Below, piece after piece: positions 49,985 through 50,059 of a stretch of DNA of 64,000 nt. The stretch is taken from positions 62,001 through 126,000 of the forward strand of contig JACPQY010000060.1 of NCBI GenBank assembly GCA_016190245.1, read 5' to 3'. Position 1 is the first letter of the stretch, and each line of letters opens with the position of its first letter. The translations under genes and the position numbers were made by a program. The notes below the pieces were generated by a model that searched no databases, was not told where the DNA came from, and saw only the letters and a list, made by a program, of their open reading frames with translations. Origin of the DNA: Nitrospirota bacterium (GTDB lineage Bacteria; JACPQY01).

Positions 49985-50059
49985 GAGGCGTAGCCCCGCC
50001 GCCGGCGGGGCACCTGAATGGGGTTCAGGTGGTCTCCCGCCGGAGGCGGGACGCCCCGA
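49985..50059 (+). repeat. Right tRNA-Pro-like copy with both D and T arms replaced by GC hairpins
   Basis: AGGCGTAG + CCCCGCCGCCGGCGGGG + CACCTGAATGGGGTTCAGGTG + GTC + TCCCGCCGGAGGCGGGA + CGCCCCGA. Confidence 0.85.

What the first reader, a model, noticed from the sequence alone, without database searches (positions are those of the whole stretch)
49985..50059. tRNA-Pro-like sequence whose D arm and T arm are precisely replaced by GC hairpins
Compared with the tRNA-Pro(GGG) gene at 49638-49711, this copy keeps GCGTAG, the entire anticodon arm CACCTGAATGGGGTTCAGGTG, the variable GTC and the 3' acceptor CGCCCCGA. CGCAGCCTGGTAGCG is replaced by CCCCGCCGCCGGCGGGG, and CGCGGTTCAAATCCGCG by TCCCGCCGGAGGCGGGA. 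The junctions fall exactly at the arm boundaries. Two acceptor mismatches argue against canonical function. It could be a decaying tRNA copy invaded by hairpins, a tRNA mimic, or a structured RNA.
Basis: seen in the sequence. Interest (0 to 1): 0.85.

Follow-up and report, generated by a model that had tools for sequence, protein, structure and literature searches.

The report
Selfish tRNA-targeting nuclease unit with hairpin-armed copies
The odd tRNA copy is one end of a small, apparently selfish DNA unit: a nuclease gene sits beside a normal tRNA gene and is flanked by broken copies of that tRNA in which whole arms are swapped for the host's own short palindromes, and the same design recurs beside many different tRNA genes in dozens of distantly related bacteria.

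Summary
The sequence is exactly as described: 49985-50059 is a tRNA-Pro(GGG) copy whose D arm and T arm are replaced by GC hairpins. Between the intact tRNA (49638-49711) and this copy lies an 82-aa GIY-YIG nuclease gene (49732-49980), and a truncated copy with the same D-arm hairpin lies upstream (49566-49612). Two other GIY-YIG genes in this genome (tRNA-Leu, tRNA-Arg) show the same layout. So do many relatives: 58 of 79 related loci from many phyla have a tRNA within 400 bp, and 45 of 75 linked loci carry a second, imperfect tRNA copy. In the copies, hairpins replace whole arms far more often than chance; they belong to each host's dispersed palindromes. Nuclease phylogeny follows tRNA isotype across phyla. 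Isolates carry tandem arrays of the unit, and between two Omnitrophota the nuclease gene is 98.3% identical where the flank is 82%. Best reading: a chromosomal tRNA-targeting homing cassette, analogous to phage SegB, whose tRNA copies are disrupted at the presumed target arm. Mobility and tRNA specificity are well supported; DNA cleavage and a protective role of the hairpins are inferred. No description was found in the papers searched.

The parts
49566..49612 (+). truncated upstream tRNA-Pro copy: 5' acceptor, D arm replaced by hairpin CCCCGCCGGAGGCGGGG, start of anticodon arm
   Evidence: direct repeat D2, 94% over 35 nt with the downstream copy
49638..49711 (+). intact tRNA-Pro(GGG) gene
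   Evidence: ARAGORN, Rfam RF00005 61.6 bits
49732..49980 (+). GIY-YIG nuclease ORF, 82 aa, TTG start
   Evidence: PF01541 E 1.1e-12; homologues of the same length
49985..50059 (+). downstream hairpin-armed tRNA-Pro copy (the finding)
49994..50010 (+). hairpin in place of the D arm
   Evidence: D arm is the altered arm in all 8 loci of the Pro-associated nuclease clade (read)
50011..50034 (+). unchanged anticodon arm and variable GTC
   Evidence: 25-nt exact repeat
50035..50051 (+). hairpin in place of the T arm (17 nt lost, 17 nt gained)
50052..50059 (+). retained 3' acceptor strand

Best explanation
The locus is a small chromosomal selfish unit built around a free-standing single-domain GIY-YIG nuclease that is specific for one tRNA gene. 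SHOWN by sequence: the nuclease gene lies beside the intact tRNA on the same strand; one or more imperfect copies of that tRNA flank it; in the copies, host-type palindromes replace or interrupt an arm; related units are sporadic, horizontally exchanged and tandemly amplified. INFERRED: the nuclease cuts the intact tRNA gene at or near the arm that is disrupted in the copies; the break is repaired from a chromosome or neighbouring unit carrying the cassette, using the duplicated tRNA ends as homology. This inserts or adds a unit while regenerating one intact tRNA. Palindrome-disrupted copies escape re-cutting and so persist and pile up. The window copy is such a disrupted end: D arm and T arm replaced, remainder kept as homology.
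For: Linkage: 17 of 54 stand-alone GIY-YIG genes in 60 genomes lie within 300 bp of a tRNA, strands 21:1, versus 0 of 10 long-frame GIY-YIG loci; 58 of 79 relatives of the window ORF within 400 bp. Copies: 45 of 75 linked loci carry a tRNA-like copy, 36 best matched by their own tRNA among 75. Hairpins: 66 with the linked tRNA on both sides in 34 loci versus about 4.5 loci in swap controls; 34 of 50 replacements centred within 2 nt of an arm centre versus 13.3 expected, maximum 26 in 2000 placements. Host palindromes: TCCCGA-N-TCGGGA has 232 and 83 copies in exactly the two of 60 genomes whose tRNA copies bear it; CCCGCC-N-GGCGGG 67 versus 1 control in F. aridisoli, 45 versus 12 in the window genome. 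Specificity: isotype needs 36 changes on the nuclease tree versus 53.4 shuffled, 0 of 200 as low (core only 33 versus 49.8). Mobility: same tRNA-Pro identical in Chitinophagaceae, unit seen only in F. aridisoli; Omnitrophota pair ORF 98.3% versus flank 82%, and the copy in L077 matches the other species' tRNA 29/29. Tandem arrays: 3 x 430 bp perfect, 4.1 x 316 bp in Zunongwangia atlantica versus one unit in Z. pacifica, 11.3 x 107 bp hairpin-armed tRNAs in a Poribacteria chromosome. Analogy: phage SegB.
Against: No cleavage data. The intact tRNA next to the nuclease should itself be a target, so activity must be low or repair efficient (the SegB paper discusses the same puzzle). Some hairpin-bearing tRNA fragments occur beside tRNAs with no nuclease (4 of 38 tRNAs in this genome have fragments; L218). 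30 of 75 linked loci show no copy at E<1e-4. The window ORF has Arg where relatives have a nearly invariant His (position 31) and may be impaired. The isotype tree rests on about 70-86 columns. No relative was found in viral contigs, phages or plasmids, so the vehicle of transfer is unknown.
Confidence: 0.6

Rival explanations
1. Two independent processes: a tRNA/GIY-YIG tandem duplication leaves a redundant tRNA copy, and the genome's REP-like palindromes then land in it simply because it is unconstrained DNA. The hairpins have no role in the unit.
For: Hairpin sequence follows the host, not the nuclease clade; extra palindromes accumulate in some copies (L082); pure insertions without loss occur (L138, L122; Zunongwangia).
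Against: Most events are arm-for-arm replacements of similar length rather than random insertions; the affected arm is clustered on the nuclease tree (12 changes versus 17.7 shuffled, minimum 14); identical hairpin copies are amplified as part of the unit.
Confidence: 0.25
2. A REP/RAYT-like system: the GIY-YIG protein is a structure-specific nuclease that processes hairpins and spreads the host's palindromes; tRNA arms, themselves hairpins, are exchanged for palindromes through cruciform or template-switch intermediates.
For: Genomes with expanded palindromes carry more stand-alone GIY-YIG genes (mean 2.9 versus 0.65, p 0.0003); the profile also matches SLX1, a structure-specific nuclease; hairpin-for-hairpin replacement; perfect stems with compensatory differences across phyla.
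Against: Only two palindrome patterns were tested and genome plasticity could confound the correlation; one genome (G049) has the palindromes and no stand-alone GIY-YIG; the SLX1 match is weak and general to the fold.
Confidence: 0.15
3. The hairpin-armed copies are functional RNAs (tRNA mimics, decoys or processing signals) kept by selection for a cloverleaf-like outline.
For: Arm-for-arm replacement preserves a cloverleaf outline; Poribacteria copies with D and T arms intact still score as tRNA (34 bits); covariation in the D hairpin of the Pro clade.
Against: The window copy is predicted to fold as a rod and has no Rfam tRNA match; many copies are only half tRNAs; folding z-scores are unremarkable for two of three other copies.
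Confidence: 0.07
4. Assembly chimera or plain decay of a single locus.
For: The window comes from an 86-contig genome of 85% completeness.
Against: Same architecture in isolates and in a finished chromosome, across many phyla.
Confidence: 0.02

Closest known systems
Phage T4/T6 SegB free-standing GIY-YIG homing endonuclease (PMC13096335; T4 mobile DNA review PMC2988022)
   Same: Free-standing GIY-YIG nuclease beside tRNA genes; cuts within tRNA genes; drives tandem amplification of a tRNA plus nuclease unit (718 bp), attributed to tRNA-5'/segB-3' microhomology; horizontal spread between phages of different hosts.
   Different: Here the unit is chromosomal and found across many phyla, the protein is about 82 aa with only the GIY-YIG domain, the nuclease tree follows tRNA isotype, and tRNA copies with palindrome-replaced arms flank it; the paper's text has no occurrence of 'palindrom' or 'hairpin'.
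UPF0213 / single-domain GIY-YIG proteins (PDB 1zg2, 1ywl)
   Same: Closest solved sequences, similar length and domain.
   Different: No link with tRNA copies is described in the papers found here.
Rickettsia palindromic elements and mitochondrial double-hairpin elements
   Same: Short mobile palindromes landing in genes (general knowledge; papers located, not read in detail).
   Different: Not tied to a tRNA-adjacent nuclease; here palindromes replace tRNA arms in flanking copies.
REPIN-RAYT systems
   Same: Dispersed host palindromes together with a cognate nuclease-like gene flanked by copies (general knowledge).
   Different: The protein is GIY-YIG, not a tyrosine transposase; tRNA copies are local to one tRNA gene.
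Integrative elements at tRNA genes
   Same: Duplication of tRNA ends around an insertion (general knowledge).
   Different: No integrase in the unit; duplicates can be whole tRNAs or 5' halves; single-gene cassette.

Membership tests
GIY-YIG nuclease (PF01541) | Pfam match over the gathering score | tested here: met
   48.5 bits versus 22.6
GIY-YIG nuclease (PF01541) | catalytic signature residues | tested here: inconclusive
   Tyr, Tyr-x-Gly, Arg and Glu invariant in the alignment; the nearly invariant His31 is Arg in the window ORF
Free-standing homing endonuclease | gene next to its conserved target gene, outside introns and inteins | tested here: met
   linkage to tRNA genes; that the tRNA is the target is inferred
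Free-standing homing endonuclease | sporadic distribution and horizontal mobility | tested here: met
Free-standing homing endonuclease | site-specific double-strand cut in the cognate allele and biased inheritance | not testable with these tools
   needs biochemistry and crosses
SegB family | close sequence relation to phage proteins | tested here: not met
   no tblastn hit in 50,697 phage records and none in viral contigs
Functional tRNA (the hairpin copy) | scores as a tRNA and folds as a cloverleaf | tested here: not met
REP-like dispersed palindrome (the hairpins) | many dispersed copies in the same genome above a reversed-pattern control | tested here: met

The most novel reading that the evidence does not exclude
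A widespread, previously undescribed class of bacterial selfish element: isotype-specific tRNA-homing GIY-YIG cassettes that use duplicated tRNA ends as homology arms and borrow the host's palindromes to disrupt the target arm in their own tRNA copies, growing into tandem arrays by repeated cutting of the intact tRNA.
Probability: 0.5. Interest if true: 0.88.

Novelty: new variant of a known kind. Interest (0 to 1): 0.8.

Why it matters
tRNA genes are among the most conserved sequences, so a nuclease that homes to them could invade many hosts; the cross-phylum match of nuclease clade to tRNA isotype suggests exactly that. It would extend the SegB tRNA-amplification mechanism from phages to chromosomes, explain many annotated 'GIY-YIG nuclease next to tRNA' genes and puzzling pseudo-tRNAs, and give a testable link between a nuclease and the still mysterious short palindromes that litter bacterial genomes.

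Tried and rejected
Loose one-sided hairpin/tRNA matching was rejected because swap controls scored too high (up to 30 of 75 loci); replaced by a two-sided collinear test. Viral contigs, phages and plasmids gave no relatives. Paper searches for GIY-YIG beside tRNA pseudogenes, tRNA-derived repeats and palindromes in bacteria gave nothing on this architecture; in the 2006 GIY-YIG superfamily survey the word tRNA occurs three times and not about gene neighbours. NCBIfam gave no family for the window protein. RNA-mimic reading was tested by folding and Rfam and not supported for the window copy. Structure prediction was not run because it would not separate the explanations.

Full report
WHAT IS THERE. 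Reading the window confirms every element of the observation. The intact tRNA-Pro(GGG) lies at 49638-49711. The copy at 49985-50059 keeps GGCGTAG, the whole anticodon arm, GTC and CGCCCCGA, and has 17-nt GC hairpins where the D arm and the T arm should be; two acceptor positions are mismatched. The 25-nt anticodon-arm identity occurs only at these two places in the 3.29-Mb genome with up to 3 mismatches.

THE SAME LAYOUT ELSEWHERE IN THIS GENOME. The genome has five GIY-YIG matches. Three follow a tRNA gene directly: tRNA-Pro (window), tRNA-Leu(GAG) and tRNA-Arg(CCG). In all three a second, hairpin-bearing copy of that tRNA lies beyond the nuclease gene. Of the other tRNAs examined (41 tRNAs listed), four have small tRNA fragments nearby without a GIY-YIG gene, one of them (Lys) ending in a CCGCC-GGCGG hairpin, so the nuclease can be absent or lost.

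OTHER GENOMES. In 60 genomes spread over many groups, 17 of 54 stand-alone GIY-YIG genes lie within 300 bp of a tRNA, 21 tRNAs on the same strand and 1 on the other, against 0 of 10 long-frame GIY-YIG loci. Among 79 loci related to the window ORF, from Bacteroidota, Omnitrophota, Patescibacteria groups, Myxococcota, Thermotogota, WOR-3, Poribacteria, Acidobacteriota and others, 58 have a tRNA within 400 bp. These 79 were chosen by similarity to the window ORF, so the 60-genome figure is the less biased one. A tRNA-like copy besides the annotated tRNAs is present in 45 of 75 linked loci and is best matched by the neighbouring tRNA in 36.

HAIRPINS. A two-sided, collinear test finds 66 hairpins embedded in copies of the linked tRNA in 34 loci; with tRNAs swapped between loci the same test finds on average about 4.5 loci. 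Of 50 distinct replacements, 34 are centred within 2 nt of an arm centre (13.3 expected, maximum 26 in 2000 random placements); the median loss is 15 nt and the median gain 16. The hairpin sequence is that of the host's dispersed palindromes: TCCCGA-N-TCGGGA has 232 and 83 copies in the only two of 60 genomes where it is expanded, which are the ones whose tRNA copies bear it; CCCGCC-N-GGCGGG is expanded in the window genome, F. aridisoli and an Omnitrophota genome. The altered arm follows the nuclease: D arm in all eight loci of the Pro-associated clade, anticodon arm in the Asp and Glu clades (hand-assigned arm labels need 12 changes on the tree versus 17.7 shuffled). In the Pro clade the D hairpins vary only by paired changes.

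SPECIFICITY AND MOBILITY. On a tree of 71 nucleases, tRNA isotype is strongly clustered (36 changes versus 53.4 shuffled, none of 200 as low), also with tRNA-overlapping C-termini removed and four long rows left out (33 versus 49.8). The window protein sits in an all-Pro clade with Bacteroidota, Thermotogota and WOR-3. Near copies contribute to such clustering, and the tree has few columns. In Chitinophagaceae the same tRNA-Pro(CGG) is identical in many genomes but only F. aridisoli carries the unit among the loci compared. In two Omnitrophota with shared synteny the flank is 82% identical, the nuclease gene 98.3% and the intact tRNA 90.7%; the copy in one (L077) equals the other's tRNA over 29 nt and not its own. 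In Zunongwangia pacifica the tRNA half carried by the unit matches the tRNA of Z. atlantica rather than its own tRNA.

ARRAYS. F. aridisoli has three perfect 430-bp repeats of nuclease, hairpin-armed tRNA-Pro and terminator at a contig end, and another unit beside the intact tRNA. Z. atlantica has 4.1 repeats of 316 bp, each a tRNA-Arg 5' half with a palindrome inserted without loss next to the anticodon loop plus the nuclease gene, ending at an intact tRNA-Arg; Z. pacifica has one unit. A Poribacteria chromosome has 11.3 repeats of 107 bp, each a tRNA whose anticodon arm is replaced by TTCCGATAGATCGGAA, between an intact tRNA and the nuclease gene.

MECHANISM. The nearest experimentally studied system is phage SegB, a free-standing GIY-YIG endonuclease that cuts in tRNA genes and amplifies a tRNA-plus-segB unit in tandem, attributed to tRNA/segB microhomology (PMC13096335). 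By analogy I infer that these nucleases cut the intact tRNA at the arm disrupted in the copies, that repair from a unit inserts or adds a unit while one intact tRNA is restored, and that palindrome-disrupted copies are kept because they are no longer cut. Linkage, copies, arm replacement, isotype specificity, transfer and tandem growth are shown by sequence; cutting and protection are not. The alternatives are that palindromes merely accumulate in redundant copies, or that the nuclease itself handles palindromes (genomes with expanded palindromes have more stand-alone GIY-YIG genes, mean 2.9 versus 0.65, on two palindrome patterns only). A functional tRNA mimic is not supported for the window copy.

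VERDICT. Real, recurrent and, as far as the searched literature goes, undescribed in this form; a new chromosomal variant of tRNA-associated free-standing homing endonucleases, with palindrome-armed tRNA copies as its unexplained and most interesting feature.

Noticed in passing
L005 1488-1780 and L006 1478-1783 (same genome, contigs C37 and C33): Two further GIY-YIG genes, not tRNA-linked, are each flanked by about 15-nt terminal inverted repeats (CCCCGCACCTATCC ... GGATAGGTGCGGGG): possibly a different small mobile unit.
   Followed up: no
window 49378-49490 and 21515-21625: A dispersed element of about 110 nt with nested CCGCC-GGCGG hairpins and inverted ends (GAGATTGC ... GCGATCTC) occurs in both places.
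   Followed up: partly
window 21949-22045: ARAGORN tRNA-Arg(CCT) on the minus strand has no Rfam support and is probably a false call.
   Followed up: partly
window 51806-54463: 885-aa protein joining a radical SAM/SPASM-like half to a methyltransferase half and ending in GAKCGPGCC; looks like an arsenic-type methyltransferase fusion.
   Followed up: partly
L104 729-2330: Poribacteria chromosome with 11 near-identical tandem tRNAs lacking an anticodon arm (hairpin instead), next to a GIY-YIG gene; each still passes the Rfam tRNA threshold and would be counted as a tRNA gene.
   Followed up: yes
L131 2205-2500 and L141 2232-2404: Another GIY-YIG subgroup near tRNA-Pro has short repeats of the type GGGGCGTGCCCCGT-ACAAA instead of tRNA copies.
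   Followed up: no
L082 1880-1960: The tRNA-Glu copy has a second, longer palindromic insertion in its D arm that is absent from the 98%-identical unit in L077, suggesting palindromes keep arriving.
   Followed up: partly
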